From an uncultured Pelagibacteraceae bacterium (GTDB lineage: Bacteria > Pseudomonadota > Alphaproteobacteria > Pelagibacterales > Pelagibacteraceae): a DNA stretch of 61,213 nucleotides. Both the position numbers and the translations under genes were made by a program. This document shows positions 29,991 through 47,500 of this stretch, in pieces (the first letter of the stretch is position 1; each line of letters starts with the position of its first letter). The notes under the pieces are model-generated. The model was not told the origin of the DNA. It worked only from the letters and a program-made list of their open reading frames with translations, and did no database searches. The stretch covers positions 1 through 61,213 of the forward strand of contig CACFTS010000003.1 in NCBI GenBank assembly GCA_902569285.1. Reading direction: 5' to 3'.

Positions 29991-30025
29991 CCCTAAAAAA
30001 CGTTGTTTTATATGCTATTTTAAAC

Positions 30026-30047: not shown

Positions 30048-30167
30048 GGATTTTTTTAATAAATACAGTGTTTTTTTAAATAGAATCATTGATTAATAGA
30101 CAAATTTAATTCATAAATTACTGAATAATTAATTATTAATAACATAAAGTAATAATAAAGGGTTAAA

Positions 30168-30806: not shown

Positions 30807-30824
30807 TTATCATTAAAAAAATTT

Positions 30825-30860
30825 AAAAACCCCTCTAATTTTTTAGAGGGGTTTTTTTTT
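30825..30860. terminator. Bidirectional intrinsic terminator between convergent genes
   Basis: Perfect stem AAAAACCCCTCTAA / TTAGAGGGGTTTTT with extra T. It serves the outer-membrane protein gene and, on the other strand, the nucleotidyltransferase gene, whose last codons and stop (30843-30845) lie inside the stem. Confidence 0.9.
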
Positions 30861-31526
30861 ATTTAAATTTTTATAGTTATTTAAATTATCAACTGTAAAC
30901 CATTTTTTAGGTGTTATATCTGATACATATAGTTGGTTAATTTTTATTAATCTTTTCCATAGAATATTAAAATCATCAGTTTTTTTAATTTTTTTATAAA
31001 TTTTATTAGGATTTAAAACTTGTATACCAGTACAATAAATGTCAGTTTTATTTTTTCTAGATAGTTTTTGTATAATATTTTTTTTTCTAAAGATATAATC
31101 ACCATCTAATCCCTCTATAGGTTTAGTAGGAATAATCATGCATAAAGGCTGGCCTTTTTTATTATAGTCTTTTTCAATTTTTTTAAAGTTTATTTCTGTA
31201 ACATTATCGCAAGTTAAAACATAGATAGGATTGTTAAAGTTTTTAAAAATAGAATTAAAAATCCACCATGCATTTCCTTTATTATTAGTATTAATTATAG
31301 AAGAAACATTTTTTTCTATTAAATGTTTAGCTAAGATAGGACCTTTATAGCCAACTGAAATATGAATATAATTAATATATTTTCTTAATTTTTTTATTCC
31401 ATTAGCAATTAAAGAAGATTGCTTATATTTAACAAGTCCCTTTGGAATTTTTTTTGTTAGAGGCATTAATCTTATGCCTCTACCAGCAGCCATTATAAAA
31501 GCATGATCTATTTTTTTATAACTCAT
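30843..31526 (-). CDS. Sugar-phosphate nucleotidyltransferase family protein
   Basis: An NTP_transferase-fold protein. It has MAAGRGIRLMPLTKKIPKGL (N-terminal nucleotide-binding motif with Gly-x-Arg), a substrate region around IINTNNKGNAWWIFNS and the Asp-containing VLTCDNVTE. It would activate a sugar phosphate to an NDP-sugar for surface polysaccharide. The start at MSYKK (31526) overlaps the upstream epimerase-like gene by 11 bases and gives a better N-terminus than the track start 15 bases further on. It ends inside a terminator stem. Confidence 0.8.
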   Translation of the reverse strand: MSYKKIDHAFIMAAGRGIRLMPLTKKIPKGLVKYKQSSLIANGIKKLRKYINYIHISVGYKGPILAKHLIEKNVSSIINTNNKGNAWWIFNSIFKNFNNPIYVLTCDNVTEINFKKIEKDYNKKGQPLCMIIPTKPIEGLDGDYIFRKKNIIQKLSRKNKTDIYCTGIQVLNPNKIYKKIKKTDDFNILWKRLIKINQLYVSDITPKKWFTVDNLNNYKNLNKKKPL

Positions 31527-32469
31527 GAGAGTTAAGACCAAATCTAATTATTTTTTCAATTTCATTATTGTTTAATTGTTTTGCATTTTGAGAAGAAACA
31601 ATTTTTTTGAGTGGTTTTTTTGATAATATATTAAAATCGATTATAAAAAATTTTTTGTTTTTAATTTTAAATTCTTTTGCATATTTTAATTCATCCTCAC
31701 CAATAAGGTATTCATCTAATCTATCACCTTTTCTCGTTTTAATTATTTTATATTTTCCACCATATTTTTTTACCCATACTTTAAGAATATCTATCATCTT
31801 AGAAGATTTCATTTCTGCAGAAAGAATTTTACCTGACAATTTATCTTTAAGTTTTAATGCTTGATCAATTAAATTCACTGCTTCTTCGACTGAGAAAAAA
31901 AATCTTCTCATATTAGGACCAGTGGTTAAAATAGTTTTATTTTTATTAAACATTTGTTTCCAAATTGGCAGAACTGATCCAGTTGACCATGTTACATTTC
32001 CATATCTTACACAAATAAATTTTGTTTTTCCGTAAGGTTGTATTGATGAAAAAAGTCTTTCCATACAAGATTTACTTAGGCCATAAATATTTTTTATTGG
32101 TGGAGAAGCTTTATCGGTAGATACACCAATTACTGTAGGTATTTTTTTATTTATACACGCTCTTGCAATATTTGCAGAACCTACAATATTTATATCTATA
32201 CATTCAAAAGGAAACTTTTCTGATAAATCTACAAATTTAGTTGCTGCAGCATGTATAACAATATCTGGTTTTGCATAATTTAAACAATCATTTACAGATT
32301 CAATATTAGAAACATCGAGAGGTATTACTTCGCAGTTCGTAAGATTTTTAACTAGAAAATTTTGTTTATTATTTCTAGCACCTATAAAAACTTTATATTT
32401 TTTTTTATAAAAAAGAGCTAAATTTCTCCCCAGATATCCGGTTCCACCTGTTATTAGAATTTTTTTCAT
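31516..32469 (-). CDS. NDP-sugar 4,6-dehydratase-like SDR (PseB/CapD type)
   Basis: A 317-residue extended SDR. ILITGGTGYLGRNLA is the nucleotide loop, the active-site region is STDKASPPIKNIYGLSKSCM with the YxxxK motif, and TWSTGSVLPIWKQMF plus MRRFFFSVEEAVNLI match polysaccharide-biosynthesis 4,6-dehydratases that act on UDP-GlcNAc. First gene of a two-gene unit with the nucleotidyltransferase. Likely makes a modified sugar for lipopolysaccharide or a capsule. Confidence 0.83.
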   Translation of the reverse strand: MKKILITGGTGYLGRNLALFYKKKYKVFIGARNNKQNFLVKNLTNCEVIPLDVSNIESVNDCLNYAKPDIVIHAAATKFVDLSEKFPFECIDINIVGSANIARACINKKIPTVIGVSTDKASPPIKNIYGLSKSCMERLFSSIQPYGKTKFICVRYGNVTWSTGSVLPIWKQMFNKNKTILTTGPNMRRFFFSVEEAVNLIDQALKLKDKLSGKILSAEMKSSKMIDILKVWVKKYGGKYKIIKTRKGDRLDEYLIGEDELKYAKEFKIKNKKFFIIDFNILSKKPLKKIVSSQNAKQLNNNEIEKIIRFGLNSHEL

Positions 32470-32509
32470 TATTAAATGTATTAAATTTGTTTATAATTTT
32501 AATTATAAA

Positions 32510-33433
32510 ATGTCTATATCTATTCATATACCTTTTTACAATCCAAATCCTGAAAAAAAGGAAGGATACAGAAATTTAACAAGATTTGATTATTTAAATG
32601 AAAATATTTTAAATTTAAAAAATTTATCTTTTCAAACTGACATATTTATACATACCCACAATGATTTTTTAGATAATAAAAATTTAGATGCGCATGTGAT
32701 TAATCATAAAATAAGCAATGAAGATTTAGAAAAAGGATATTTAACTTGGTTAACTAGACCTGAAATGGAAAAACAAAAAAATGATTATGAATATTTTATG
32801 TATCTTGAGCATGATATAAAATTCACGGAAAAAAACTTACAATATTACCTAAAATATCAAAAAATTTTTTTAAATAAAAAATTTAATTTAGGATTTTTAA
32901 TTTACGAAAAGAACAATGAAAATAATGAAAATTATAGTATCCACATTACTAATAAATTGAATAATTTTTTTTATATTGATAACCAAAAGTTTATGATTAA
33001 TGATTGGGATACTTATTGTTGTTTTTGGATTTATAATAAAAAACAATTTGTAGATTTTATTAAATCAAAGTGGTGGAATTTTGAAAATAAAGTTCACAAT
33101 TTTAGGCATAATTATGGAATAACCGAAAGATCATCAATAGGATTTAATGCTCCAAATATAAATTATTTTAAAGCAACTTTATTACCGGAAATTAATAAAA
33201 AGCCTCATCCAGATTGTTTTGTAGAACATATTACCAATAATTATTTTGAAAAATTTAAAGAATTTAAAAATAAAGGGTACAAAGATATTAGAGGAGTTTG
33301 TACATATAAAATAGATGAAGTTTTTGAGGAAACCACTAATCATAAAAAATCAATTAATCATTTTTATATAAAAAGATTTTTTAAAATAATCTTTTGGAAA
33401 CTAAGATTCTTGACAAGACTCTTTAGGAATTAA
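32510..33433 (+). CDS. Glycosyltransferase-like protein of unknown specificity
   Basis: A 307-residue protein beginning SISIHIPFYNPNPEKKEGY, with a LEHDIKF segment near residue 102 that resembles the aspartate-containing metal/nucleotide site of GT-A glycosyltransferases. The C-terminus is Lys/Arg and aromatic rich (KIIFWKLRFLTRLF), compatible with membrane attachment. It lies divergent from the sugar-nucleotide genes, supporting an envelope role. No family can be named with confidence. Confidence 0.55.
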   Translation: MSISIHIPFYNPNPEKKEGYRNLTRFDYLNENILNLKNLSFQTDIFIHTHNDFLDNKNLDAHVINHKISNEDLEKGYLTWLTRPEMEKQKNDYEYFMYLEHDIKFTEKNLQYYLKYQKIFLNKKFNLGFLIYEKNNENNENYSIHITNKLNNFFYIDNQKFMINDWDTYCCFWIYNKKQFVDFIKSKWWNFENKVHNFRHNYGITERSSIGFNAPNINYFKATLLPEINKKPHPDCFVEHITNNYFEKFKEFKNKGYKDIRGVCTYKIDEVFEETTNHKKSINHFYIKRFFKIIFWKLRFLTRLFRN

Positions 33434-33870
33434 TGAAAATGAAAAAAGAATTTGAATGGACATGTCGGCACACTTGGAAACGTAGTGCTTATAATACCTT
33501 ATGGTGTTTAATTGGATGCTCGATTGGAGATTTTGGAACAATTTTATTTTTTCAATTACAAAATATTCTTTGGCCTACTCTTTATATAATGATTTTGGCA
33601 ATCATTAATGGCTTGATTACAAGCATAATATTAGAAACTTTTATTCTATTGAAACAAATGAATTTTGGTCAAGCCTTAAGGACAGCGCTTGGAATGAGCT
33701 TTATTTCTATGATTAGCATGGAAATTGTTATGAATACTGTTGACTGGTGGTTAACGGGAGGAGCTAATCTAAACTGGTGGATAATACCTGTTATGCTAAT
33801 AGCTGGCTTTATTACACCTTGGCCATATAATTATTGGCGATTGAAAAAATTTGATCTATCCTGTCACTAA
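33433..33870 (+). CDS. DUF4396-like membrane protein
   Basis: A 145-residue protein with about four helices. It shows TCRHTWKRSAYNTLWCLIGCSIGDF near the N-terminus (quoted short: CRHTWKRSAYNTLWC), and WWIIPVMLIAGFITPWPYNYWRL near the end. This pattern corresponds to the DUF4396 family, whose function is unknown; the Cys-His content hints at metal or redox binding. Start overlaps the preceding stop by one base. Confidence 0.7.
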   Translation: MKMKKEFEWTCRHTWKRSAYNTLWCLIGCSIGDFGTILFFQLQNILWPTLYIMILAIINGLITSIILETFILLKQMNFGQALRTALGMSFISMISMEIVMNTVDWWLTGGANLNWWIIPVMLIAGFITPWPYNYWRLKKFDLSCH

Positions 33871-34032
33871 TATGAAAAAGATTTTAGGGATCTTGGTTTT
33901 GGTGGTCAAGCAATTTTAATTGATATGGATAACTCAAGAATAGTTATAATAAATTCTGCTCACTACAATCACGAAAAATATAAATATAATCATAAAAAAC
34001 TTTTAATTGATCCAATAAAAAAAGGCAAATGA
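33871..34032 (+). pseudogene. C-terminal remnant of a serine hydrolase (beta-lactamase family)
   Basis: Directly after the DUF4396 stop, in the same frame, a 53-codon stretch reads DFRDLGFGGQAILIDMDNSRIVIINSA and ends at TGA 34030-34032. This GYGGQ-like, DxxNSRIVV-like pattern is the C-terminal end of beta-lactamase-fold serine hydrolases. No start codon or catalytic SxxK part precedes it, so it is a decayed fragment. It ends within the start of the autotransporter-like gene. Confidence 0.6.
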
Positions 34033-36338
34033 TGAAAAAACTTTTAGGAATTGTATTTTTATTTTTACTTTTTTATAGTAGTTCTGCTTGGGCGAGTTGT
34101 GATACCACTTTAGCTTCGGACTCAACTACTCAGCTCATATGTGATTCAAATGATGAATTAACAGTTAATGAAGGTGTGACTTTAAATAGAAATGGCAAAT
34201 ATGCCGTATATGCAGTTAACGATGACAATGTAAAAGTAACAAATCACGGAACTATAACTAATAATAACCATTTCACACTTCATATGCGAAATACAACGAG
34301 CGCTACTATTGATAATAAAAGTACAGGCATAATACAAACAACAGGGGGATGCTGTACTATTGATTATAAAGGTTCTGACGGTACATTCACTCTTACAAAT
34401 GCGGGAACTATAATTTCTAAAACACACGGCACAATTATTAATTGGGGGACAAGCAGTTCAATTGTAAATATTACAAATTCAGGAACAATTAGAATGAGAG
34501 GAGAAAGTGTCAGTCAAAGTGATGTGAAAGCACTTTGTGCAATTTGTACCGCAGGTTCAACAGGAGCTGTAACTATTACAAACTCTGGAACAATTGAAAC
34601 TATAGGAGATGATAGGCCAGCGATTTATACTAATGATGAAACTGCTTCAACCATAATCAACTCAGGAACAATTTCTGGACATGGCACTGCTAAAGATATT
34701 TTAGTTGCTGATGATTCTTCTGGTACAGCTACAACTACAATCAAGATTAGTGGAGAAGGAAGTTTTAACAATGGAATTGAATTAAATGATACAACTGTAC
34801 AGCTAGTTTTAGAATCTGATATTAAAAGAGATACTACAGTAACAATTTATAATAAGGACAATCTTACAATTGTAAACAATCTCACAGGAAATGATACTTA
34901 CTCAATTACAAGTGAAAACTTGGATAGTGGTGAGGGTGATACTACTCTTGGAGATGGAGTTCTGACAATATTTGGTGAAGATCTTGAGATAGCTCAAGAC
35001 AATCCAAAATATAGAAGTGAAAATGTTTTAACTAAGCTACGTGGTTTATTTGATGCTGTAAATTATATTAATTGGCATGCCCCAGAAGATAAATTCTTTA
35101 AAATATTTCATAGCACACAGAAGAGAGAAGGAACCTATAAGGGAGAAATGTCAGGTGTTGTTGGTCAGTTAAGTCCTTTTATTTTAGGAGATATTAGAAA
35201 TAATATTTTTCTCGGCTATACAAGACAAGATGGAAACTTTGACAATGGTGAATTCTTAGGAGGAGATAACTTTGCATTAGGTTTAAAGAGTGTTTATGAA
35301 AATAATGGATTTAAAGCATCTTTCACACCTATGATTGGTTTGAATGATCTAACTGTTACTGATTTTGATACAGATACAAAAACAAAAATAAGCACAAATT
35401 TATTATCGGAATTTGCTGGGTTTAATACAAAATTTGGAAAAGAAATAAAAACAAGCGAAGATAGCTCGTTAAGTTTAAACGTACAGTCAACTTTAGGGGT
35501 GCAAAGATTTCCTGATTATCTTGCAAAATTTAGTGAAGGAGATTTGTCAGTCGATGAAGCAATAGAACAAGTTCTTGGTGTTGGGTTTGAAGTAAGATAT
35601 GTAGAAGAACTTGGTAATAGCTTTATTATTCAGCCTTATATTGGAGCCAATTTTAATAACAATCTTAATAATTCTATAAAGATAACAGCAGATGGAGAAA
35701 ATAAAAATGTAACTCCTGCTAATGAAATGACAACTGGATACTTTGCCGGTGTTTCTTTTACAAAAAAAACCAAAGATATGAACTTTGATCTGGAATTAAT
35801 GTATGGCAATGAAGACGGTTTAATTAATCAAATTGCAGCTTTATCATTAACTAAAACATTTGGAAAAATTAAGGAAGCAAAATTACAAAAAGAATCTGAT
35901 ACATCAAAGGATGTTAAAATTTTAACTTCCAAAGGTTATGATATAGATCTAAAAGAGATCGAAGAATTAAGAAAAGCAAACGAAACATTAAATGCTAAAA
36001 ATGAAGAATTAATAGCTCAAAACGAAAAGCTTAAATTATTAACTCAAAAAACTCTTGAAGAAAATGCAACAAGCAAAAGATTAATTGTTGAATTAATTAA
36101 AGATAATGAAAAATTAAAATTAGAGAAACAAATATTTAAAAATAAAATTTTAGAAAACGAAAATAAAGATCTGCAAAAACAAATTGATAATGTTGATCAA
36201 AAAAATAATAAAACTTTATTATTCAATATAATATTAAGTATTATATTATTTGTAATCTTTGCCGTCATATATCTTATTATCAATTTTATATTTGGAATTT
36301 ATAAAAGGAAAGCTTTTAAAATTGCTCAGATTCAGTAG
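34029..36338 (+). CDS. Autotransporter-like outer-membrane protein with C-terminal coiled coil and membrane helix
   Basis: A 769-residue protein with a signal peptide (KKLLGIVFLFLLFYSSSAWA). Residues about 25-310 contain beta-helix-type repeats of the form TNSGTI (VTNHGTITN, FTLTNAGTII, VNITNSGTIR, VTITNSGTIE). Residues about 330-620 resemble a 12-strand autotransporter barrel, ending QIAALSLTKTFGKI. Unlike ordinary autotransporters, it continues with a Lys/Glu-rich coiled coil (about 640-720, KEIEELRKANETLNAKNEEL) and a hydrophobic segment at 729-755, then a basic tail. The extension would lie in the periplasm and could insert in the inner membrane. ATGATG start; either Met possible. Confidence 0.75.
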   Translation: MMKKLLGIVFLFLLFYSSSAWASCDTTLASDSTTQLICDSNDELTVNEGVTLNRNGKYAVYAVNDDNVKVTNHGTITNNNHFTLHMRNTTSATIDNKSTGIIQTTGGCCTIDYKGSDGTFTLTNAGTIISKTHGTIINWGTSSSIVNITNSGTIRMRGESVSQSDVKALCAICTAGSTGAVTITNSGTIETIGDDRPAIYTNDETASTIINSGTISGHGTAKDILVADDSSGTATTTIKISGEGSFNNGIELNDTTVQLVLESDIKRDTTVTIYNKDNLTIVNNLTGNDTYSITSENLDSGEGDTTLGDGVLTIFGEDLEIAQDNPKYRSENVLTKLRGLFDAVNYINWHAPEDKFFKIFHSTQKREGTYKGEMSGVVGQLSPFILGDIRNNIFLGYTRQDGNFDNGEFLGGDNFALGLKSVYENNGFKASFTPMIGLNDLTVTDFDTDTKTKISTNLLSEFAGFNTKFGKEIKTSEDSSLSLNVQSTLGVQRFPDYLAKFSEGDLSVDEAIEQVLGVGFEVRYVEELGNSFIIQPYIGANFNNNLNNSIKITADGENKNVTPANEMTTGYFAGVSFTKKTKDMNFDLELMYGNEDGLINQIAALSLTKTFGKIKEAKLQKESDTSKDVKILTSKGYDIDLKEIEELRKANETLNAKNEELIAQNEKLKLLTQKTLEENATSKRLIVELIKDNEKLKLEKQIFKNKILENENKDLQKQIDNVDQKNNKTLLFNIILSIILFVIFAVIYLIINFIFGIYKRKAFKIAQIQ

Positions 36339-36420
36339 AGCCTTTCCTGCACTACATAAAAAATTTGATGTAGATATTAATTTAAGAGGAGTTTCTGTTT
36401 ATGTTGGTGATAAAAATTAA
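36339..36420 (+). pseudogene. Possible coding remnant in an alternate frame after the autotransporter-like gene
   Basis: In the frame with TAA at 36418-36420, the sequence reads AFPALHKKFDVDINLRGVSV then YVGDKN, continuing open for at least 30 codons upstream into the autotransporter-like gene in another frame. Its composition is protein-like, with no start codon. It may be the tail of an older gene cut off by insertion or recombination of the upstream gene. I could not name the family. Confidence 0.3.
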
Positions 36421-36466
36421 TAAATAGAAATTCTAATTTATTAAAGTGTTTATTTAATTATATTTT

Positions 36467-37039
36467 ATGAAAGAAATTTTAAAAAAAAAATTTAAACCTC
36501 GAATTAAAGCTCGAATTAGAAAAAACAAACAAATTATAAATAAGAATATAGATAAATTTTTTGATTGGATCAAAGGTGCTGAACTAGTTGAACTTAAAGA
36601 ATGCAAAACACAAGAAGATCCAGTTAGACCAGAATTAGATAATGTTTTTAGAAGAAGTTATGGGAGAAAAATTTATGGAGTTAAATATATGGGAGAAATT
36701 AAAGCAGTAATGTGTTTTGTTTATACAAATGAAATTCCAAAAAATGTTGAAGAATTAGATAAGTTTAGCCATGACGCTTATTTAAAAAGCGCACAAAGAG
36801 ACCAAAATATTGGGAAAATTGCTATTGCATATACAGTATGGTCAAAAAAAAAGGGTGGTGGTAAATTGATTGTTAAAGAAGTTTTTAAAAAGATTAAAAA
36901 ATCAAATCACCTTAACAGATTAGTTACATTGTCGCCTTTAACTGAAATGGCAACGCGGTTTCATAGTAAAAATGGAGCAAAGCTTTTAAGAATAAACGAA
37001 ACAACCCAGAATTTTGAGTATCATATAGATAAGAAATAA
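36467..37039 (+). CDS. GNAT-like protein of unknown function
   Basis: A 190-residue protein with a very basic N-terminus (KKKFKPRIKARIRKNK), then KIYGVKYMGEIKAVMCFVYT and a GNAT-like pattern: IAYTVWSKKKGGGKLIVKEVF, resembling the acetyl-CoA pyrophosphate loop, then NRLVTLSPLTEMATRFHSKNGAKLL. Similar proteins are common in phages, but this is from memory. Single gene between the autotransporter-like gene and the MORN gene. Confidence 0.5.
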   Translation: MKEILKKKFKPRIKARIRKNKQIINKNIDKFFDWIKGAELVELKECKTQEDPVRPELDNVFRRSYGRKIYGVKYMGEIKAVMCFVYTNEIPKNVEELDKFSHDAYLKSAQRDQNIGKIAIAYTVWSKKKGGGKLIVKEVFKKIKKSNHLNRLVTLSPLTEMATRFHSKNGAKLLRINETTQNFEYHIDKK

Positions 37040-37075
37040 AAAAATTAATTAAATAATAATCAATTAAATAAATAA

Positions 37076-37666
37076 TTAATCAACTCTTTTGCTTGCTTTC
37101 CATTCACCACTATAAGTTTTTCCAGAATTGTAAACAGATTTTCCTTGACCATGTTTTCTGAAAGCTTTCATTTCACCTGTGTATGTACCATTTGAATACT
37201 TACATATTTTAATTTTTGGATCATTAGTATTTTTACAATAGGGAGATAATTTATAAATTTTTTCTCCATAAAAAAGTGAATAGATAATTATAAATGAAAT
37301 TATGAATGGAGTCGTAATAGCAATGATTGGAAGTTTTAGTATCAATAAATTTTTTATTCCTGCAACTATGAAAATTTCATCAAACATTGTGGTAAATATT
37401 TTTGCTAAATAAACATAAACACCGATCATTAATAAGCTAAAAAATAGATCTAAATTTAATAAGTAACCAGCTGAAAATAAAAAGATTATAATTATTGAAG
37501 AAAGAATTGAAGCTCCTACGACCCCTAAATAGTAGATAATAATTAAAGATATATTTAAAATTACTGTATTAGATTTTAAAAATGAACCCAACCAACCTAA
37601 AAGAAACATAACTAAAATAAATGTATTTAGATGATATATGTATGGATGTACTAGACCTAAGTTCAT
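37076..37666 (-). CDS. Membrane protein with C-terminal MORN repeats
   Basis: A 196-residue protein with about four hydrophobic segments in residues 10-140 and, at the C-terminus, two MORN-type motifs: YSNGTYTGEMKAFRKHGQG and YNSGKTYSGEWKASK. MORN repeats bind lipids or mediate protein contacts. The start overlaps the stop of the LRR-like gene by 4 bases (ATGA), so the two are likely co-translated. Confidence 0.75.
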   Translation of the reverse strand: MNLGLVHPYIYHLNTFILVMFLLGWLGSFLKSNTVILNISLIIIYYLGVVGASILSSIIIIFLFSAGYLLNLDLFFSLLMIGVYVYLAKIFTTMFDEIFIVAGIKNLLILKLPIIAITTPFIISFIIIYSLFYGEKIYKLSPYCKNTNDPKIKICKYSNGTYTGEMKAFRKHGQGKSVYNSGKTYSGEWKASKRVD

Positions 37667-40575
37667 TTTTTATTTTCTTTTTTTTCTTTAATTCTCTTTT
37701 TTAGTATATGAAAAATAATACTACTATTTATTGTTAATTCACTTTCTTTCTCTTCTTCAATTTTATTATAATTTTCTTCATCTTTCCCTTCAAGATGATA
37801 ACTGGTAATATCTTTATCTAAATTTTTTCTTTGCAAATTCAATAAAAATTTTTCTCTTTTAGTTCCAATTTTTTCAAATATTTCCTCAAGCTCTTTATTA
37901 GAAATGTTTTTTTCAGCAAATCCAATTTGAAGATTCAAATTTGTGTTTGCTAATTCAATAGTATTTTTTAATCTTGTACCTATATTTTCATCAAAAGAAA
38001 ATCCAAGTTTCTCAATATTTTTGATATTATTAATCTTTTTAAAGTCTAAAATTATGGGGTTTTTTGCATTTTTCTCTCTACGTCTTTTTTCTTTTTGATA
38101 AGCTGAGTTTTCATCATTGTCCCAATCGTATTTAATTTCACAATCTTTACATCCAACATCTAATGTAATTTTTTTAGCTTTTTTAAATTTTGTAATTAGT
38201 TCATTGTACCATTCATGGACTAAATTCAGTTCTTTTTTTTCATAATTACACAAAATTTCGATTTGCTCTAAATCTTTATTTATAAGTTTGAAAAATTTAA
38301 TAATATTTACATTAATTTTTTCATTACCAAATCTTGGAAAATAAATCTTTAATATTTTCAATTTTTTTGAATATTGTAAAAAATCAAAGTCATTCTCAGT
38401 TAATGGTTTGTGAATTATACCATCAGTAGAATTCATTTCTTTGGTTATCATGCATGGATTAACTATTTCGAGTTCCTCTAAATTTTCAAGGTTTGATAAA
38501 TTTTTGATCAGGGTTTGATCAATTGATTTTATTTCCAACTTTTTAAGATTTTTCAAATTATTAAAATTTGTTAAATCAACATCAGTTGTATTCCACCACG
38601 TATCTTCATAATTGTAAGTAAGGCCAATATCCAAATTAATTTCCTCAAGTTTATTTGATTTATCAATGTTCATTACTTTTTTTGTCACATTAGGTTTATT
38701 ATCTTTCATAAAAGGATAGCGAGTGGTAAGCGAAAGTTTTTTTAAATTTTTAAAAGTAGGAAACTCCCAACATAGTGGATCTTTCTGATTTATATAATTA
38801 TTAAAATGTAAATCTTCTAAATTTTCTAAAATTTTAAGAGAATTTAAAGAACAAGGTGGAGATGATCGAAGGCCAAACTTTTTAACTTTTAAATAATTTA
38901 TAGATTTTGGAAACTGAAATGTTTTATTTTCAAACAATTTTTCATGATTAGGATATTGTTCCTTGTCAACGTAAAAGAAATTAATATTTTCTAGATTGTT
39001 AAAAATTATCTTTTTGGATTGATCTAAAAAACTTTTTTTTATTATAGGAACACAGCACCCTGGATTTTTTTCAAAATCAGAAATACTCCAAGATCCCTCA
39101 AAATAATCATATTCATAAAATTCTTTAAATGATTCTTCACTTTTCTTCTTTAATTTATCAAAATCTATTGGACCTTCGAATATCGACAAATAATAAGGAT
39201 CATCAAGATTAATATCTAAAAGCTCTATATCTTTAAATTTTTTAAGAGTTTCTGAATTCGATTGATCATCAACAACAATTACTGATTTAATTTCATTTAA
39301 ATAAATTTCATCAACAAATTTTTCTATATCTGAGTTTTTTAAATTTTTAATTTCAATAAATTTTTTGTAAGTATCTTTATTTTGACAATTGAGGAAAAAT
39401 TTAAATATCTCAATAAATTTATGATAATTTGAATTAAAATCATCAAATGAATTTAAATCTTTAAAGTTTATTGAACAAAAAATTTTTTTTTCAATTATAT
39501 CTTTTATTAACCGAATAGAATATTCTGAACAACTACGACCTACTGTTTCCCAGAAGTCATTAAAATCTAATTCTAATGTAATTTTTTTGATTGATTTATT
39601 TTTTATAATTTTTTCACTTATAAAATCATAAGTAGTATCAAAGTATTCAAAATGATTATCTAAAAAACTTCCAACTGTATTAATGATTACATGATCTAAT
39701 TTTGATTTTATAATTTCATTAAAAATATTGGAGTAACCATTGTAATTTTGTGATGGCCAATGAACTTCCAAGGTATCTTTTAATTCTTCATGTTTTTTAA
39801 CTTGTGTTCTATTTCTTTCCTCAGCTTCTAAGTATTCATAATCTAGAAGTAAGGTTTTTGACTTAGTTATTGTCTCTCTATATTTTGATATTTTTTTACT
39901 ATTAATGTTTATTTTTTGAGTGTTAGGAAGTGATAAGAGTTTCTCAAATATTATTTTTTTTTCAAAAATATCCTCATCAATCTCTGTTAGTTTTATATTT
40001 TTTAAATTTTTTAGCCTTAATAAATTATAAATATCGCATTGAAAAAAAATATCCTTTCCTTCATATATTTCAGAATAATAATAATCATAATCCTGCTCTT
40101 TAAGATTTTTTAAAAAAATATCATAATTAATTAGCTCTATTTCACTTAATCCTTGATATGCATTAGGGTAATTAGGAAAAGCATTAATAAAATTATTAAA
40201 GTTATTCTGTCTGTCATATAATTCTAACATACTTAAGTTTGGACTATCTTCACTTGGAAAAGCAAAAGCTATCTTATTTAATTGAGGTATCTTTATATTA
40301 ATTTTTGTATCAGATTTTTTTATTATACAGTCATAATCATATTTTAATATTTTTAAACTTTGTATTTTTGAAATAGCCTTAAAAAAAATATTATTATCAA
40401 ATAGGCAATTTTCTAATTGAATTTCATTAAGTTGAGTAAATTTAGTAAGTTCATCCCAGTTTGTTTCATTATTAAAATTTTTGAGAATTAAAATTGTGAT
40501 GTTATCTGGATTTTTTACTTCATTTATAAACGATTTAGAATTTACAGTTTTTAATTGATCAACTATAGTTTCCAT
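37663..40575 (-). CDS. Very large leucine-rich-repeat-like protein
   Basis: A 970-residue protein without signal peptide. Leu/Asn-spaced repeat units occur, mainly from residue 540 on: NLENINFFYV, ILENLEDLHFNN, FKNLKKLSLTTRYPF, LKNLKKLEI, LENLEELEIVNP and KKLKILKIYFPRFGN. N-terminal units (LTKFTQLNEIQLENC) also match. LRR folds bind proteins, so this may be a sensor or scaffold. It is divergent from the Hsp70-like gene with only 26 bases between starts, suggesting shared control. Exact domain limits cannot be set by eye. Confidence 0.7.
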   Translation of the reverse strand: METIVDQLKTVNSKSFINEVKNPDNITILILKNFNNETNWDELTKFTQLNEIQLENCLFDNNIFFKAISKIQSLKILKYDYDCIIKKSDTKINIKIPQLNKIAFAFPSEDSPNLSMLELYDRQNNFNNFINAFPNYPNAYQGLSEIELINYDIFLKNLKEQDYDYYYSEIYEGKDIFFQCDIYNLLRLKNLKNIKLTEIDEDIFEKKIIFEKLLSLPNTQKININSKKISKYRETITKSKTLLLDYEYLEAEERNRTQVKKHEELKDTLEVHWPSQNYNGYSNIFNEIIKSKLDHVIINTVGSFLDNHFEYFDTTYDFISEKIIKNKSIKKITLELDFNDFWETVGRSCSEYSIRLIKDIIEKKIFCSINFKDLNSFDDFNSNYHKFIEIFKFFLNCQNKDTYKKFIEIKNLKNSDIEKFVDEIYLNEIKSVIVVDDQSNSETLKKFKDIELLDINLDDPYYLSIFEGPIDFDKLKKKSEESFKEFYEYDYFEGSWSISDFEKNPGCCVPIIKKSFLDQSKKIIFNNLENINFFYVDKEQYPNHEKLFENKTFQFPKSINYLKVKKFGLRSSPPCSLNSLKILENLEDLHFNNYINQKDPLCWEFPTFKNLKKLSLTTRYPFMKDNKPNVTKKVMNIDKSNKLEEINLDIGLTYNYEDTWWNTTDVDLTNFNNLKNLKKLEIKSIDQTLIKNLSNLENLEELEIVNPCMITKEMNSTDGIIHKPLTENDFDFLQYSKKLKILKIYFPRFGNEKINVNIIKFFKLINKDLEQIEILCNYEKKELNLVHEWYNELITKFKKAKKITLDVGCKDCEIKYDWDNDENSAYQKEKRRREKNAKNPIILDFKKINNIKNIEKLGFSFDENIGTRLKNTIELANTNLNLQIGFAEKNISNKELEEIFEKIGTKREKFLLNLQRKNLDKDITSYHLEGKDEENYNKIEEEKESELTINSSIIFHILKKRIKEKKENKK

Positions 40576-40601
40576 ATATTTAACTTATCATATTAAAAAA
40601 A

Positions 40602-42143
40602 ATGTCAAAAGTAATTGGAATAGACCTTGGTACAACCTTTTCTGCAATTGCAAGTCTAGATGATCTTGGAAATCCTGAAGTATTAGCAAGTATAGAAGAT
40701 AATAGAAAAATTACAGCTTCAGCGGTTTATGTTAAAGAGAAAGAAGTTATTGTCGGTGATAAAGCTCTTAATTTTGTAAAAGATGAATCTAAAAATGTAA
40801 TTCTTCAAACTAAAAGAGAAATGGAAAATGATGTTGTTTACTCAACTGAACAAGGTAGATGGGTAAATGATAAAAATTTAGTTGACACATATACACCTGC
40901 ACAAATTAGTGCATTGATATTAAAAAAATTAAAAGAATATACAAATGATGTAAAAAAAGCTGTAATCACGGTACCTGCTATGTTTGCAGAAAGAGCCCGT
41001 CAGGCAACTTTAGATTCTGCAAAAATTGCTGATATAGAAGTTATTGAATTAATAAATGAACCCACAGCAGCAGTATTACATTACGCAAGTTTGCCTGGTG
41101 TTGAGGTTGGGGGAAGAGTTATGATTTTTGATTTGGGTGGGGGAACTTTTGATGTTACCTTTGCTGAAGTCAAGAATAAGAAAGTAGATGTATTAACCTC
41201 AAGAGGAGACAAATACTTAGGTGGAAGAGATTTTGATAAAGAAATTACAAAATTAATTAAAAAAAAATATTCTGATATTCATAAGGTTGAATTGGATATT
41301 GAAAATAACAAAGAGTATATTCATAAAGCTGAAGAAGTTAAAAAAATTCTTTCTGTTAAAAATATTGCAAGTGTAGACATAAATGGTCCAAAAGGGTTAC
41401 AAAAAATTGAAATTACCCGAGAAGAATTTGAAGAATCTATACAAACTTATATAGAAAAAATTAAAATGCTTATTGAAGAGGCGATGGAAGCATCGAATAT
41501 GAAACCTTCTAGAATAAACCAAACATTGTTAGTAGGAGGTAGTACAAGAATTCCGATTATCACAAAAGTATTGACAGAATTAATGGGTAAGCCTCCTGTA
41601 AAGGGAGTTAATGTAGACGAAGCAGTTGTTTGTGGAGCTGCAATTTATGCAGGGTTGAAAACTGAAAATAAAACTCTTAGTGATGGACAACAAGAAGCTT
41701 TAAAAGATGTTAAATTAACTGATGTTTGTAATTTTTATATGGGTACTTTCGCAGTAATACTCGATCCTTTAACAAAAAGACAAATAATGGCTAATACTAT
41801 AATAATAAAAAGAGATCAAAAATTGCCTGTTAGTGTTACTAAAAGATATACAACTATGAACGAAGGGCAAGAGGAAATTGAGTGTTCAGTTACTCAAAGT
41901 GAAGGACCTGAGGACAACAAAGAATTTGTAAATGTTATTCATGACGCAATGTTAAAACTTCCAAAAGGAAGAGCGGCTGGTCAACCTATTGATATAACAT
42001 ACTCTTATGATGAGTCTGGTAAAATGCACTGCATGTTTACTGATGTAGAGTCTGGCAACACTCATGAAATTGAATTATCACCTGAAACAACAGAATCTAT
42101 AGATAATGCCAGAAAACAAATTGAAGAAATTTCAATTGAGTAA
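40602..42143 (+). CDS. Short Hsp70 (DnaK/HscC-like) chaperone variant
   Basis: A 513-residue Hsp70. The full ATPase domain is present: IGIDLGTTFSAIA, INEPTAAVLHYA, DLGGGTFDVTF and LLVGGSTRIPI. It then has a shortened substrate-binding beta domain and no long helical lid; standard DnaK is about 640 residues. Right behind it are a membrane TerB/J-like protein (next base after the stop) and an M48 peptidase. It is not the housekeeping DnaK. Confidence 0.9.
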   Translation: MSKVIGIDLGTTFSAIASLDDLGNPEVLASIEDNRKITASAVYVKEKEVIVGDKALNFVKDESKNVILQTKREMENDVVYSTEQGRWVNDKNLVDTYTPAQISALILKKLKEYTNDVKKAVITVPAMFAERARQATLDSAKIADIEVIELINEPTAAVLHYASLPGVEVGGRVMIFDLGGGTFDVTFAEVKNKKVDVLTSRGDKYLGGRDFDKEITKLIKKKYSDIHKVELDIENNKEYIHKAEEVKKILSVKNIASVDINGPKGLQKIEITREEFEESIQTYIEKIKMLIEEAMEASNMKPSRINQTLLVGGSTRIPIITKVLTELMGKPPVKGVNVDEAVVCGAAIYAGLKTENKTLSDGQQEALKDVKLTDVCNFYMGTFAVILDPLTKRQIMANTIIIKRDQKLPVSVTKRYTTMNEGQEEIECSVTQSEGPEDNKEFVNVIHDAMLKLPKGRAAGQPIDITYSYDESGKMHCMFTDVESGNTHEIELSPETTESIDNARKQIEEISIE

Positions 42144-43724
42144 ATGAAAATAATTTCATTAATTGTAATATTATTCTTTTTTTGTTTTAATATATACGCT
42201 GATGATGAATTTAATCGAAATTTAGAGATAATCAAAAAATTTGAAAAAGATATAAAAGAGAGGAATGATCAAATTCAGCTAGATGATAAAAGAATAGAAG
42301 ATATAATTAAAAAAATACAAAAAAACCCTTCGCTAACTCGAAAAACAACAAATGAAGATTGGTCTCAAAAATTAAGACCATTTATAATCCCTTTATTAAT
42401 TGTTCTTTGGTTGATCTTTAGAAGTGATGATCAAAAAACAGATAAACCAAGAAAAAAAAGAGATAATCAATCTAAAATTGATGAATTTATAAATAAATCG
42501 AATAGGAAAAATAAAAACAATAAGAGTGAAGATGAATTTGAAGAAAATTTTAATGATTACTTTGGAATTAATCAAGACAAAAAAGAGGACCTACCTGAAA
42601 ATTCTTTTAGAGACAATTTAAATATTAAGATTGAGGAAAGAAATCATGAAAATAGTTTTTGGTATTTTATTTTAGGCTTTGGAACATTTAATTTAGAAAA
42701 CAAATATTATAAATTAATAGATAAAGAAAATAGCGAAGCTAAGTTCACTGTTTATGTTTTTGATATTACTGATGAAAAAGAAGAAATAGCAATACAAGGG
42801 TTAATAGATCCATTTAAGGATGAAAACTATTTATTATCAATGAATAGATCAATGAAAGTTGGACCTGGATACGGTTACTTTGAATGGACACCAATTTTTT
42901 TATTTCCAAAAAATCAACTTATTCCACCATATAGGGGAGAAAGAAAATTAAAATTTAAACTCTTTATGACTAATAAGAAAGCTAAATTTGATAAAGCTAA
43001 TATTATCAATAAAAAGGATCTTTATTATTCAACAGAATGTATATTTAATCTTAATTTTGAAGAGCCAGGCTACTTAGAGGAAGATAAATATGAAGAACAG
43101 GTAAACGAAAAAATTGTCCAACTTGGATTAGCTGTTGCATACTCTGAAAAGAAAATTAATCAAAAAGGAGTTGAAGCTATAAAAAGTTGGATTAATCAAA
43201 AAGTAATTTTAAAGAATTTTTTTTTAGAAAATACTGAAGAGGAAAATAAAAATAAAATTAAATATTCATTTTTATTAAAAAATACATACGAATTATTAAG
43301 AAATAATAAATTATCTTTGTCTGAAATAGTTAAGGAACTCAATCATAAATCAAGTTCATCTAAAAGATATGATGCAATGAATTTACTGTTAAATATAGCA
43401 GGGTCTGACGATCGTTTAAGTTCGCAAGAGGACAAGTTGTTAAATCAGACAGCAAGAGCTCTTGAATTAGACATGAATAGATTTCAACAGATGAAAACCT
43501 CAACTATTGCAAATATTGATAGCATTGAAGAAAATGGTGATGATAATGAAGAAACTATATTCAATTTTTCTCCTGATATGACTGATGCTGATAAATGTAA
43601 AAAATTAAGAGAGGAATATACTAGATGGAATAGACAAACTAACAATTCTAATGAAAATATTAAAAAACAAGCTAAAAAAATGGTTGAGTTGACAGCAAAA
43701 CTTAGAAAGAAATATAATTGTTAA
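42144..43724 (+). CDS. Membrane-anchored TerB-domain protein with J-like C-terminus
   Basis: A 526-residue protein. Order: signal-anchor-like hydrophobic start (SLIVILFFFCFNIYA), a coiled region, second membrane helix (FIIPLLIVLWLIF, about residues 78-91), charged linker, a beta-rich middle domain, a TerB-like domain (from VQLGLAVAYSEKKINQKGVE to AGSDDRLSSQEDKLLNQTARAL) and a C-terminal helical segment TDADKCKKLREEYTRWN resembling a J domain that lacks HPD. TerB plus J layouts are known in DjlA-like Hsp70 partners. It directly follows the Hsp70 gene, so it may recruit it to a membrane. Confidence 0.65.
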   Translation: MKIISLIVILFFFCFNIYADDEFNRNLEIIKKFEKDIKERNDQIQLDDKRIEDIIKKIQKNPSLTRKTTNEDWSQKLRPFIIPLLIVLWLIFRSDDQKTDKPRKKRDNQSKIDEFINKSNRKNKNNKSEDEFEENFNDYFGINQDKKEDLPENSFRDNLNIKIEERNHENSFWYFILGFGTFNLENKYYKLIDKENSEAKFTVYVFDITDEKEEIAIQGLIDPFKDENYLLSMNRSMKVGPGYGYFEWTPIFLFPKNQLIPPYRGERKLKFKLFMTNKKAKFDKANIINKKDLYYSTECIFNLNFEEPGYLEEDKYEEQVNEKIVQLGLAVAYSEKKINQKGVEAIKSWINQKVILKNFFLENTEEENKNKIKYSFLLKNTYELLRNNKLSLSEIVKELNHKSSSSKRYDAMNLLLNIAGSDDRLSSQEDKLLNQTARALELDMNRFQQMKTSTIANIDSIEENGDDNEETIFNFSPDMTDADKCKKLREEYTRWNRQTNNSNENIKKQAKKMVELTAKLRKKYNC

Positions 43725-44863
43725 TGTATAATGTTTTAGATAAATTTAGATATTCGAAAGATGATCCATCTCAATTAAATATTTCTCTTAAAAAAGATCC
43801 ATATGAAAAAGTTAATAATAATAATTCAAATAATTTAAACCAATTACTTTCAACTTCTGTAAAAGTTTCAAAAGAAATATTTCCAAATATTAATTCAGCA
43901 ATCGATAAAGTATTTGAGAGATTAGAGATAAAAAATAATCTTAATTTTTTTGTTACTGCTAATCATTTTCAAACTCAAGCCTCATGTAGTGCAATGCCTT
44001 TAGGAGATAGTGCTGAAATTATTTTAACTTCAAAACTTATTGAATTATTAAATGATCAAGAACTTCAATCTGTAATAGCTCATGAAGTTGCTCATTTTTA
44101 TTATCAACATGCTTTATATCCACAAGCAAGTAGTTCAAAAAATAGAACACAGATCTTAAACCTTCTAAATTTTTCAAGGGCAGCTGAAATAAGTGCTGAT
44201 CGAATTGGATTTATCGGTTGTGGAAGTTTAGAAGCATCTCTACGAGCTATGCTCAAGATTACATCTGGACTAGATGAAAAGCATCTTAAATTTAATTTTA
44301 GTTCATATTTAAATCAATTAAGGGAACTTAAAGAAATAAAAGGAGACAAAAATTTAATGTACTCAACACATCCAAATTTTTTAAATAGAATGCAAGCACT
44401 TATATGGTTTTCAATGTCTAATGAATACAATGATCATTTTGATACAGGTAAAAAGGGTACTTTTAATCTTAAGGCTGTTGATGATAAAATTTATGATAGT
44501 ATTAAAAAAGTAATAGGTGATGAGGTTGATTATTCTAATAAAGAGGTTGTGAGTAGAGCTTTAATGTGGGGCTCTATAGATGTTTTTTTATCAGATAAAA
44601 AATTCTCAAAAAAAGAACAAGAAATATTTAAAAAAAATTTTGGTGACAAAAGTACAGAAAGTATTCTTTCATTAATAAAAATCTCTAACCCAAAATCTAT
44701 TCATGAAAAAATAAAGAATACATTTGAAGAAGCATCTAAATTATTAAATAAGGATAAAGAAAAAATTGTTAATGAACTCACAAAATTATTAAAAATTGTT
44801 GATGGAGAAAAAAAAATAGCTGAAAAAGTAATAAAAAAAATAAAGACAAATCTTAAAATATAG
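43724..44863 (+). CDS. M48 family metallopeptidase, soluble
   Basis: A zinc peptidase with the HEVAH (HExxH) motif at about residues 120-124 and a third-ligand glutamate in AAEISADRIGF. No membrane helix is visible, unlike HtpX. The C-terminal 120 residues are helical and contain a TerB-like acidic pattern (SIDVFLSDKKFSKKEQEIFKK). The track starts at TTG 43718; I prefer ATG 43724, which overlaps the upstream stop as TAATG. Third gene in the chaperone cassette, so it may degrade clients delivered by the Hsp70. Confidence 0.85.
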   Translation: MYNVLDKFRYSKDDPSQLNISLKKDPYEKVNNNNSNNLNQLLSTSVKVSKEIFPNINSAIDKVFERLEIKNNLNFFVTANHFQTQASCSAMPLGDSAEIILTSKLIELLNDQELQSVIAHEVAHFYYQHALYPQASSSKNRTQILNLLNFSRAAEISADRIGFIGCGSLEASLRAMLKITSGLDEKHLKFNFSSYLNQLRELKEIKGDKNLMYSTHPNFLNRMQALIWFSMSNEYNDHFDTGKKGTFNLKAVDDKIYDSIKKVIGDEVDYSNKEVVSRALMWGSIDVFLSDKKFSKKEQEIFKKNFGDKSTESILSLIKISNPKSIHEKIKNTFEEASKLLNKDKEKIVNELTKLLKIVDGEKKIAEKVIKKIKTNLKI

Positions 44864-44876
44864 GTTTAAATTAGTA

Positions 44877-45533
44877 ATGAGTAATCAAGTATTAGGAACT
44901 TTGCATGGATTTTGTAATACTAAAACTGAAGATGGAGAAATAGAAAAAGTATATAAAAATTTTACAGAAGGTAAATTAACTTCATATTTAAAAAAACAAG
45001 AAAATTATCTAAAAATATCTGATAAAAAAGTTTCAGATAAGATGAACCTTATAGAATTAAAAGGAACTTATATAGGACACTTTGTTTATCCAATTAACTC
45101 TTTAAAAAGAGATAGGGTTCAGTCATATAGAATTGATGAAATGGAAGATAGATTTATTCCAGAGTCTATGGGTGGAAAAGGATGGGAAAAAGGAAATTTT
45201 AATTGTTTACAAATATTTAATGTTGAAAAGCCTTTAAATGAATTAACATTAGGCAATCACATAGGTCGTAAAGTTTTCATGCAATTAATAGATTTAGATG
45301 ATGAAGAGTATAATTTTATAAAAGATTATGATGATAAAATTAAACAACTAGTATTAGTAGTTAAAAATAACAAACCTTTGCCAAATCTTTCAGTTAAAAA
45401 AGCGACTGAAGAATTAGAAACTAGCTACACAGATATGAGAGATGCTATTCATGATGGAATGTTTAAAACTGAAAAAAGAAAAAAGTTTCCAATAAATAGA
45501 TATGACTCTTATGTCAGTTGGAGTGATGGATAA
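44877..45533 (+). CDS. Unknown protein, paralogue A of a tandem pair
   Basis: A 218-residue soluble protein with no recognised family. It starts LGTLHGF, has YIGHFVYPINSL, QLIDLDDEEYNFIKDYDDKIK and ends TEKRKKFPINRYDSYVSW. The last two motifs are shared with the next gene, so the two arose by duplication. No signal peptide or membrane helix. It lies 13 bases after the M48 gene and 10 before paralogue B, in one operon. Confidence 0.6.
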   Translation: MSNQVLGTLHGFCNTKTEDGEIEKVYKNFTEGKLTSYLKKQENYLKISDKKVSDKMNLIELKGTYIGHFVYPINSLKRDRVQSYRIDEMEDRFIPESMGGKGWEKGNFNCLQIFNVEKPLNELTLGNHIGRKVFMQLIDLDDEEYNFIKDYDDKIKQLVLVVKNNKPLPNLSVKKATEELETSYTDMRDAIHDGMFKTEKRKKFPINRYDSYVSWSDG

Positions 45534-45543
45534 AAAATAAGTT

Positions 45544-46245
45544 ATGGGAATATTTGATATTTTTAATTCTAAAAAGACTAGTAATGTAGGTTCACTGGGT
45601 GTTTATCATGGTATGGATTTAAGAGAGTGGAATGATGGATATAAGTCTGATGAAAAAGGAATATTAAAATTTATTAAAGCTAAATTAAAATCAATGTCTG
45701 ACGATGAGTTTATAAAATTTCTTAAGAATAGAGATCTTTACAGAAAATTTACTCATCATGAAGCTAATGATGAAATGAATAAATTAAAAGTCACAGAACC
45801 AAAAGGTCTATCTTCACTAGCATTAACAAAGTTTGATTGGGTTTTTTATCCAAAAATATTACTAGAGCGAGATTCTAATATAATTGGATTTAAGATTACA
45901 GACAGTGATGTTGCTTATGAAGGGAAAAAAAAGGGAATGAAATTTAAAAAAGGAAAAACTTTAGTTATGTTGTCACAAGATAGAAAACAAGAATACCTTA
46001 AGTATTGGGAAAAAAATTTATCTTGGCAAAAAACAGTTCATATGATGGGTTTTCAGTTTGTTGATTTAGACGACGATGAGTATAAATTTTTAAAACCTTA
46101 TGAAAATAAGTTTAAAAATAAAAATTTTAATAATGAGGCATGGGATGATTTTATAAGTAATGGTCATAATCCCTTATTTGCTACAGAAAAAAGAAAGGCT
46201 TATCCAATCAATAGATTTCAAACATATCTAGTTTTCGAGGAATAA
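45544..46245 (+). CDS. Unknown protein, paralogue B of a tandem pair
   Basis: A 233-residue protein. Shared motifs with paralogue A are LGVYHGMDL, FVDLDDDEYKFLKPYENKFK and TEKRKAYPINRFQTYLVF, while an extra middle part (SALALTKFDWVFYPK to LSWQKTVHMMGFQ) differs. The copies have diverged widely. It ends the chaperone cassette; its stop is 12 bases from the convergent 59-residue ORF. No function can be assigned. Confidence 0.6.
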   Translation: MGIFDIFNSKKTSNVGSLGVYHGMDLREWNDGYKSDEKGILKFIKAKLKSMSDDEFIKFLKNRDLYRKFTHHEANDEMNKLKVTEPKGLSSLALTKFDWVFYPKILLERDSNIIGFKITDSDVAYEGKKKGMKFKKGKTLVMLSQDRKQEYLKYWEKNLSWQKTVHMMGFQFVDLDDDEYKFLKPYENKFKNKNFNNEAWDDFISNGHNPLFATEKRKAYPINRFQTYLVFEE

Positions 46246-46257
46246 GTGAGATTAACC

Positions 46258-46437
46258 TTATTCTATTAAATCTTTCCAATTTTTTTCAGTTTCAGATTTT
46301 GAGTTACTATTATTTTTATTATTATCTTTTTCTTTTTTCATTTCTTTGTAAAGATTAATAAAATCTTGTCTGGAACCTTTTTTCTTTCCCATTTCCCTAA
46401 ATTTATTTGTCCATTTGTTTCTATCTTTTTTTTCCAT
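46258..46437 (-). CDS. Small Lys-rich unknown protein (59 residues), not in the ORF track
   Basis: The ATG at 46437 follows directly on the stop of the DUF2130 gene (46438-46440). The product MEKKDRNKWTNKFREMGKKK continues with RQDFINLYKEMKK and an Asn/Ser/Glu-rich end (NWKDLIE). The abutting position and coherent operon argue that it is real. Very hydrophilic, probably helical. Last gene of the nuclease operon. Confidence 0.6.
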   Translation of the reverse strand: MEKKDRNKWTNKFREMGKKKGSRQDFINLYKEMKKEKDNNKNNSNSKSETEKNWKDLIE

Positions 46438-47499: not shown

Positions 47500-47500
47500 A

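What the first reader, a model, noticed from the sequence alone, without database searches (positions are those of the whole stretch)
37076..40575. LRR-like giant coupled to a MORN-repeat membrane protein, divergent from the chaperone cassette
The 970-residue LRR-like protein and the MORN protein overlap by 4 bases. The LRR gene shares a 26-base divergent spacer with the Hsp70-like gene, so control may be shared. LRR sensors beside chaperone and peptidase genes suggest ligand recognition upstream of the cassette. Such large LRR proteins are unusual in streamlined genomes.
Basis: partly seen in the sequence, partly recalled or inferred. Interest (0 to 1): 0.65.

Follow-up and report, generated by a model that had tools for sequence, protein, structure and literature searches.

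The report
Swappable LRR protein beside chaperone-protease-nuclease island
In some SAR11-type ocean bacteria a large repeat protein that looks like a recognition surface sits next to a private chaperone, protease and predicted nucleases, and is exchanged between strains separately from its neighbours, as expected of the sensor part of an undescribed, probably anti-virus, system.

Summary
In detail: a 970-aa protein (37663-40575, -) and a 196-aa membrane protein with a MORN-like tail (37076-37666, -) overlap by 4 bases. A 26-base divergent spacer separates them from a lidless Hsp70. The host groups with Pelagibacteraceae (SAR11).

Sequence profiles support LRRs only below threshold. AlphaFold2/Foldseek and a PDB profile search return almost only LRR proteins, so an irregular, cytosolic LRR solenoid is likely.

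The LRR gene travels with Hsp70-TerB-M48: 15 distinct cassettes, divergent in 14 and collinear in one. MORN occurs in only 2 of 15. Eight cassettes show no LRR, five of them with both flanks readable.

(1) All 16 LRR loci with readable flanks adjoin nuclease/helicase genes (DUF2130 with an invariant D..ExK motif, DUF2779, RmuC, SbcB-like, PD-(D/E)XK), including two loci without Hsp70. (2) LRR alleles are swapped as units between cassettes: dS 1.26 against 0.31-0.53 for neighbours in one pair, 0.58 against 1.6-2.4 in another.

Best reading: the LRR protein is the exchangeable recognition subunit of an undescribed island-borne system coupling a chaperone-peptidase module to nucleases. Anti-phage defence is likely but unproven.

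The parts
37663..40575 (-). 970-aa cytosolic LRR-type solenoid protein; proposed exchangeable recognition subunit
   Evidence: fold; linkage and allele swapping; no TM segment or signal
37076..37666 (-). 196-aa polytopic membrane protein with MORN-like C-terminal repeats; optional accessory, overlaps the LRR gene by 4 bases
   Evidence: orthologue in G202 (49% identical); absent from the other LRR loci
40576..40601 (.). 26-base divergent spacer between LRR and Hsp70 genes
   Evidence: about 26 in type A, about 54 in most type B loci; no complete pair of promoters fits, candidate hexamers lie inside the genes
40602..42143 (+). Hsp70 of 513 aa: complete NBD motifs and beta-type substrate domain, no alpha lid
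42144..43724 (+). TerB-domain protein with N-terminal hydrophobic segment, beta-sandwich, TerB bundle and a strongly conserved C-terminal two-helix hairpin
43718..44863 (+). M48-family Zn metallopeptidase, HEVAH motif intact
44877..45533 (+). 218-aa protein of unknown function, paralogue of the next gene
45544..46245 (+). 233-aa protein of unknown function; copy number varies among type A loci
46438..47499 (-). DUF2130 protein: CxxC N-terminus, coiled coil, predicted PD-(D/E)XK nuclease (D176, E194, K196 of the protein invariant)
47501..49012 (-). DUF2779 protein with Cas4-like segment, predicted nuclease
48999..49271 (-). 90-aa small protein (s90) of the nuclease module
49429..49716 (-). 95-aa small protein (s95) of the nuclease module
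26809..51224 (.). hypervariable slot between an SSF symporter gene (26809) and an M50 peptidase gene (50040); the two are adjacent (about 20-50 bases apart) in several relatives

Best explanation
The 970-aa protein is the exchangeable recognition subunit of an island-borne multi-gene system found in Pelagibacteraceae. It lies in the cytosol and offers an irregular LRR solenoid surface. Its partners are a dedicated lidless Hsp70, a TerB co-factor that is membrane-anchored here (PDZ-bearing in another lineage), an M48 metallopeptidase and, on the far side, predicted nucleases (DUF2130 and DUF2779 here; RmuC, SbcB-like and PD-(D/E)XK proteins elsewhere). Proposed mechanism: the LRR surface binds a phage-made or stress-exposed protein; the Hsp70/TerB pair loads or remodels the complex and the M48 peptidase cleaves a target; the outcome is release or activation of the nucleases, i.e. 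anti-phage defence. Shown here: gene content, linkage, predicted fold, intact HExxH and D..ExK motifs, unit-wise exchange of the LRR gene. Inferred: physical contact, direction of signalling, ligand, defence role. The MORN protein is an optional membrane accessory.
For: (a) LRR-type fold. (b) Linkage: 15 distinct cassettes with LRR beside Hsp70-TerB-M48 in two sequence classes (LRR about 22% identical between them, Hsp70 57%), divergent in 14 and collinear in G378; 4 of 6 full-length-LRR genomes carry the M48 gene that is present in 8 of 297, p = 3e-6, 8e-5 without the home genome. (c) Nuclease module next to all 16 LRR loci with readable flanks, including two without Hsp70 (G109, G442), against 0 of 5 LRR-free Hsp70 cassettes with both flanks readable; the five best DUF2130 matches among 297 genomes are in genomes with LRR-family matches, one of them a decayed LRR copy beside DUF2130 in G078. 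(d) Unit-wise LRR exchange: L004 vs L036 dS Hsp70 0.31, TerB 0.36, M48 0.53, LRR 1.26, with DNA identity jumping from 59-69% to 86-97% at the LRR/Hsp70 boundary; L018 vs L029 dS Hsp70 1.9, TerB 1.55, M48 2.4, LRR 0.58. (e) LRR dN/dS 0.12-0.40 against 0.03-0.12 for Hsp70 and M48. (f) Island setting: DrmB-like, AspBHI-type restriction enzyme, C5-methylase, Z1/HATPase, RmuC and Mokosh-like helicase genes nearby; empty sites in relatives. (g) Precedents for the parts: TerB in the tested anti-phage system Shango (PMC10250203); DnaJ/DnaK needed by the NLR-like bNACHT25 (PMC12169576).
Against: No PADLOC model matches LRR, MORN, Hsp70 or TerB. LRR motif counts are not above shuffle and AF2 confidence is moderate. 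Eight Hsp70-TerB-M48 cassettes show no LRR (five of them with both flanks readable), so the chaperone module can act without it. No NACHT/STAND NTPase, TIR or other classical switch or effector domain was found. The J-like nature of the TerB tail was not confirmed. Housekeeping controls also gave some PADLOC hits, so PADLOC hits alone do not prove a defence island. The loci share ancestry, so the p-values overstate independence. No viral, phage or plasmid relative was found.
Confidence: 0.5

Rival explanations
1. The LRR protein is a substrate adaptor of a private protein-quality-control machine: it delivers particular client proteins to the lidless Hsp70/TerB pair and the M48 peptidase under stress. 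The nucleases are unrelated island neighbours.
For: Hsp70, GrpE-like, TerB and M48 form a self-sufficient chaperone-protease set that also exists without LRR; the HEVAH site is intact; the LRR gene is last in a collinear GrpE-Hsp70-TerB-M48-LRR array in G378.
Against: The LRR gene stays beside the nuclease genes even without Hsp70 (G109, G442), while LRR-free Hsp70 cassettes with readable flanks lack them; a client adaptor would not be expected to be exchanged as a swapped unit.
Confidence: 0.27
2. The genes are only co-residents of a hypervariable integration slot; LRR, chaperone cassette and nucleases have separate functions and linkage reflects shared hot-spot traffic.
For: The SSF-M50 interval is a variable slot; many unrelated genes pass through it; LRR alleles move independently of the cassette.
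Against: Linkage survives in different slots (beside an rpoD-like gene in another genus), different gene orders and two deep sequence classes; LRR-free Hsp70 cassettes do not carry the nuclease module where both flanks can be read.
Confidence: 0.18
3. The 970-aa protein is not an LRR protein but another alpha/beta repeat or low-complexity AT-rich coding product.
For: Sub-threshold Pfam scores, motif count not above shuffle, moderate pLDDT.
Against: Foldseek and the PDB profile search return LRR proteins almost exclusively; purifying selection across the family.
Confidence: 0.05

Closest known systems
bNACHT25 and other bacterial NLR-related proteins (PMC12169576)
   Same: recognition of infection depends on DnaJ/DnaK chaperones; NLRs classically pair a repeat sensor with a switch
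   Different: no NACHT/STAND NTPase here; the chaperone is a dedicated, linked gene rather than the housekeeping DnaJ/K; separate peptidase and nuclease genes
Shango (TerB, ATPase, helicase; PMC10250203)
   Same: TerB-domain protein in a chromosomal defence hot spot
   Different: no Hsp70, M48 or LRR in the published gene set; no PADLOC model matched our TerB
CoCoNuT type III systems (PMC11090510)
   Same: Hsp70-like proteins and, in some, LRR elements in nuclease-bearing defence loci
   Different: no McrB GTPase or CnuC seen here; CoCoNuT Hsp70s have degenerate motifs, ours keep the NBD motifs
E. coli HscC with the membrane J-protein DjlC; DjlA
   Same: non-canonical Hsp70 beside a co-chaperone gene; the TerB region matches the DjlA model weakly
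   Different: HscC 29% identical, DnaK 30%; no HPD J domain; no similarity to DjlC
RmuC/SbcB accessory nucleases of defence reverse transcriptase loci (PADLOC RTasRmuC, RTasSbcB)
   Same: homologous nucleases next to the LRR
   Different: no reverse transcriptase was identified in the regions searched

Membership tests
LRR proteins | Pfam LRR-clan model above gathering score | tested here: not met
   LRR_14 12.9 bits against cutoff 40; up to 19.9 in homologues
LRR proteins | solenoid of short strand-loop/helix repeats | tested here: met
   AF2 model and Foldseek hits to LRR proteins; moderate confidence
LRR proteins | LxxLxLxxN consensus enriched | tested here: not met
   7 against 9.2 expected in the window protein; 56 and 61 of 1000 shuffles reach the count in two relatives
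MORN-repeat proteins | MORN model above gathering score | tested here: not met
   none in window copy; 16.2 bits, cutoff 22.5, in G202 copy
Bacterial NLR/STAND proteins | NACHT or other STAND P-loop NTPase domain | tested here: not met
   no such Pfam match in the LRR protein or its relatives
DnaK/HscC Hsp70 | NBD with ATPase motifs | tested here: met
   PF00012 E = 6.6e-82; GIDLGTT and DLGGGTFD intact
DnaK/HscC Hsp70 | alpha-helical lid after the beta substrate domain; DnaK equivalog score | tested here: not met
   protein ends before the lid; 285 bits against cutoff 822
DjlA-type J-proteins | J domain with HPD motif | tested here: not met
   C-terminal hairpin has TNN/NHKD instead; no J-domain hit by fold
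M48 peptidase | HExxH plus downstream E | tested here: met
   HEVAH and RAAEISADR conserved
PD-(D/E)XK nucleases (DUF2130) | D..ExK active-site triad | tested here: met
   D176, E194, K196 invariant in 7 sequences; activity not tested
Known anti-phage system in PADLOC | match to a system's core genes | tested here: not met
   no model for LRR, MORN, Hsp70 or TerB; only a weak CapP hit (E 0.017) for M48
Anti-phage system | protection from phage | not testable with these tools
   needs plating assays

The most novel reading that the evidence does not exclude
A bacterial immune system of a kind not yet described, in which an LRR protein acts as a modular, horizontally exchanged sensor and works through a dedicated Hsp70-TerB chaperone pair and a metallopeptidase, with no STAND NTPase, to switch on PD-(D/E)XK nucleases, in SAR11 bacteria.
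Probability: 0.3. Interest if true: 0.85.

Novelty: new variant of a known kind. Interest (0 to 1): 0.6.

Why it matters
SAR11 bacteria are among the most abundant cells in the ocean, are heavily infected by phages and have small genomes in which few known defence systems are expected (established knowledge, not tested here). A several-kilobase, allele-swapping recognition gene kept next to a private chaperone-protease and nucleases is a concrete candidate for how they sense infection. It would also extend the link between chaperones and LRR-type immunity, known from plants, animals and bNACHT25, to a system in which the chaperone is part of the locus. The pattern is testable: the swapped LRR alleles predict a change of specificity.

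Tried and rejected
(1) Viral or plasmid origin of the LRR gene: no match in viral contigs, phages or plasmids. (2) A scan of genome contigs with the single LRR sequence found nothing; the M48 profile scan succeeded. (3) Spread beyond SAR11: 289 genomes drawn from the class gave one marginal LRR match besides the home genome; the M48 scan gave one unclassified Proteobacteria MAG outside the records named Pelagibacter(aceae) (L054). (4) MORN as an obligate partner: rejected. (5) J domain in the TerB protein: suggested by sequence (TNN/NHKD where HPD would be), not confirmed by fold or by profile against DjlC. (6) Truncated MORN gene: rejected, since the orthologue ends at the same place. (7) LRR motif counting: not informative. 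(8) Promoters in the 26-base spacer: fewer sigma-70-like sites than shuffles in the region (25 against 36), no conclusion. (10) Searches of open-access papers found no description of this gene set.
Full report
OBSERVATION. The two ORFs, their 4-base overlap and the 26-base divergent spacer to the Hsp70 gene are exactly as reported. The window is one contig of an 839,570-base, 59%-complete genome. The closest named relatives of its cassette are Pelagibacteraceae single-cell genomes and MAGs, so the host is SAR11-like. The LRR protein has no signal or TM segment; the MORN protein has 4-5 hydrophobic segments and a short C-terminal tail with MORN-like repeats.

IS IT AN LRR PROTEIN? Sequence alone is weak: Pfam LRR_14 E = 0.048 in the window protein, 5e-4 and 3.4e-4 in relatives, all below the curated cutoff, and the LxxLxLxxN motif is not enriched over shuffles. 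A family profile searched against PDB sequences matches only weakly, but mostly LRR proteins such as internalins. AlphaFold2 with a 15-sequence alignment gives mean pLDDT 72.8, best in residues 20-110 and 560-900, with short strands recurring mostly every 21-36 residues. Foldseek finds COI1, LRRC8A, internalin A and SDS22 in PDB and 41 hits at E<=1e-3 among viral models, nearly all annotated LRR or F-box/LRR proteins. I conclude: irregular LRR solenoid, likely but not proven.

WHERE ELSE IS IT? Among 297 genomes drawn from the order, 6 carry a full-length relative and 5 a partial or decayed one; 289 genomes from the class add only one marginal hit besides the home genome. A profile scan for the adjacent M48 peptidase gave 22 named loci, nearly all Pelagibacteraceae. 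Type A (window, L004, L036, L037; L038 is cut off before the LRR): LRR of about 970 aa, divergent from Hsp70-TerB-M48. Type B (L018, L029, L031, L040-L043, L045, L046, L048, L049): LRR of about 1073 aa, Hsp70-TerB (PDZ domains shown in L018)-M48, some with a GrpE-like gene; divergent in all except L031 (G378), where the order is GrpE-Hsp70-TerB-M48-LRR on one strand. Type C (L014-L017, L051, L052, L054, L055): no LRR seen, GrpE-like gene upstream where the flank can be read; L015, L017 and L054 lie at contig ends. So the LRR gene is coupled to the chaperone cassette, but not obligatorily. MORN is present only in the window and in G202. Two further LRR proteins (G109, G442) carry a 430-aa N-terminal extension and have no Hsp70 neighbour.

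THE MISSING HALF: A NUCLEASE MODULE. In all 16 LRR loci with readable flanks the neighbours include either s95-s90-(DUF2779 or an unnamed 237-aa protein)-DUF2130, or PD-(D/E)XK, SbcB-like, s144, RmuC, DUF2130 or an RNaseH-helicase protein, including G109 and G442 without Hsp70. None of the five type C cassettes whose two flanks can be read has it (L014, L016, L051, L052, L055); L017, cut at one side, has RmuC-SbcB. Fisher for 16/16 against 0/5 is 4.9e-5 by hand; one search gives 5e-5 and, after collapsing related loci, 4e-3, with slightly different counts (17/17 and 1/7; 10/10 and 1/5). Relatedness inflates these numbers. DUF2130 has an invariant D176..E194-x-K196 signature and a CxxC N-terminus. 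Of 15 genomes with DUF2130 among 297, the five best matches all have LRR-family matches; in G078 the LRR copy carries six stops and lies at the DUF2130 gene.

ALLELE SWAPPING. Synonymous divergence separates fast evolution from replacement. L004 and L036 have dS 0.31 (Hsp70), 0.36 (TerB), 0.53 (M48) but 1.26 in the LRR; L036 and L037 have dS 0.34 in the LRR but 0.89 in Hsp70. In a window profile the identity of L004/L036 jumps from 59-69% to 86-97% at the LRR/Hsp70 boundary, apart from a further dip at the 5' part of TerB. The reverse occurs in type B: L018 and L029 have LRR dS 0.58 against 1.9, 1.55 and 2.4 in the neighbours, with the drop near the 5' end of the LRR gene. LRR genes are therefore exchanged as units. 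LRR and TerB also have higher dN/dS (0.12-0.40 and 0.15-0.32) than Hsp70 and M48 (0.03-0.12).

SETTING. In several relatives the SSF symporter gene and the M50 peptidase gene that bracket this region (window 26809 and 50040) are adjacent, so the cassette occupies a variable slot. Flanks of other copies hold a DrmB-like protein, an AspBHI-type restriction enzyme, a C5-methylase, Z1/HATPase and a Mokosh-like helicase. A control set of 39 mostly housekeeping proteins gave six PADLOC families at the same threshold, one member each, so the contrast is real but PADLOC hits alone are not proof.

PARTNERS. Hsp70 keeps the NBD motifs but ends before the alpha lid; it is 30% identical to DnaK and 29% to HscC. 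The TerB protein has an N-terminal hydrophobic segment in types A and C and PDZ domains in L018; its structure model shows a beta-sandwich, a TerB bundle (match to 2h5n, probability 0.99) and a conserved C-terminal two-helix hairpin that resembles a J domain without HPD but was not recognised as one. M48 has HEVAH.

MECHANISM. Most likely: LRR = recognition; Hsp70/TerB (with GrpE in some) = loading and remodelling at the membrane; M48 = proteolytic switch; DUF2130/DUF2779 or RmuC/SbcB = nucleases that act on invading or cellular DNA. Precedents: TerB in Shango (PMC10250203), DnaJ/DnaK dependence of bNACHT25 (PMC12169576). I hold functional coupling of LRR with its neighbours at about 0.8, a recognition role at about 0.65, and anti-phage defence at about 0.5. 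The main rival is a client adaptor for protein quality control.

NOVELTY. No PADLOC, Pfam or NCBIfam model covers the LRR protein, and eight literature searches in an open-access library found no description of this gene set. Absence from that library is not proof of novelty. I file it as a new variant of the known kind 'multi-gene defence-island system', unproven.

Noticed in passing
window 44877-46245; L004 8223-9552: Two paralogous 218-233-aa proteins downstream of M48, one or two copies in type A cassettes, 25-40% identical between loci; no family known.
   Followed up: partly
window 48999-49716; L018, L030, L033, L034, L036, L038, L040, L041, L043, L048, L049: A pair of small proteins (90 and 95 aa, no family) marks the edge of the nuclease module in many islands, also beside the short N-term-LRR proteins.
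   Followed up: partly
L003 178-4464; L030 8174-12466: LRR proteins of about 1430 aa with a 430-aa N-terminal domain (weak DUF4241 match) and no Hsp70 nearby; about 690-700-aa proteins in L032-L034 share the N-terminal domain with a short LRR part.
   Followed up: partly
G078:C1:1088836-1090670: Decayed LRR copy (six stops in the matched stretch) at a DUF2130 gene in a complete genome.
   Followed up: no
L014, L016, L050-L052, L054, L055, L057: GrpE-like protein (N-terminal hydrophobic segment in L014) upstream of the Hsp70 in LRR-free cassettes; a more diverged GrpE-like gene also occurs in three type B loci.
   Followed up: partly
L005 6597-15476: Z1-DUF4420-HATPase-C5-methylase restriction-type locus, with an RNA polymerase alpha-CTD-repeat protein, directly upstream of the G109 LRR operon.
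   Followed up: no
window 34029-36338 and 36467-37039: 769-aa protein without family and a 190-aa protein with relatives in the same slot of other genomes (L079, L080).
   Followed up: no
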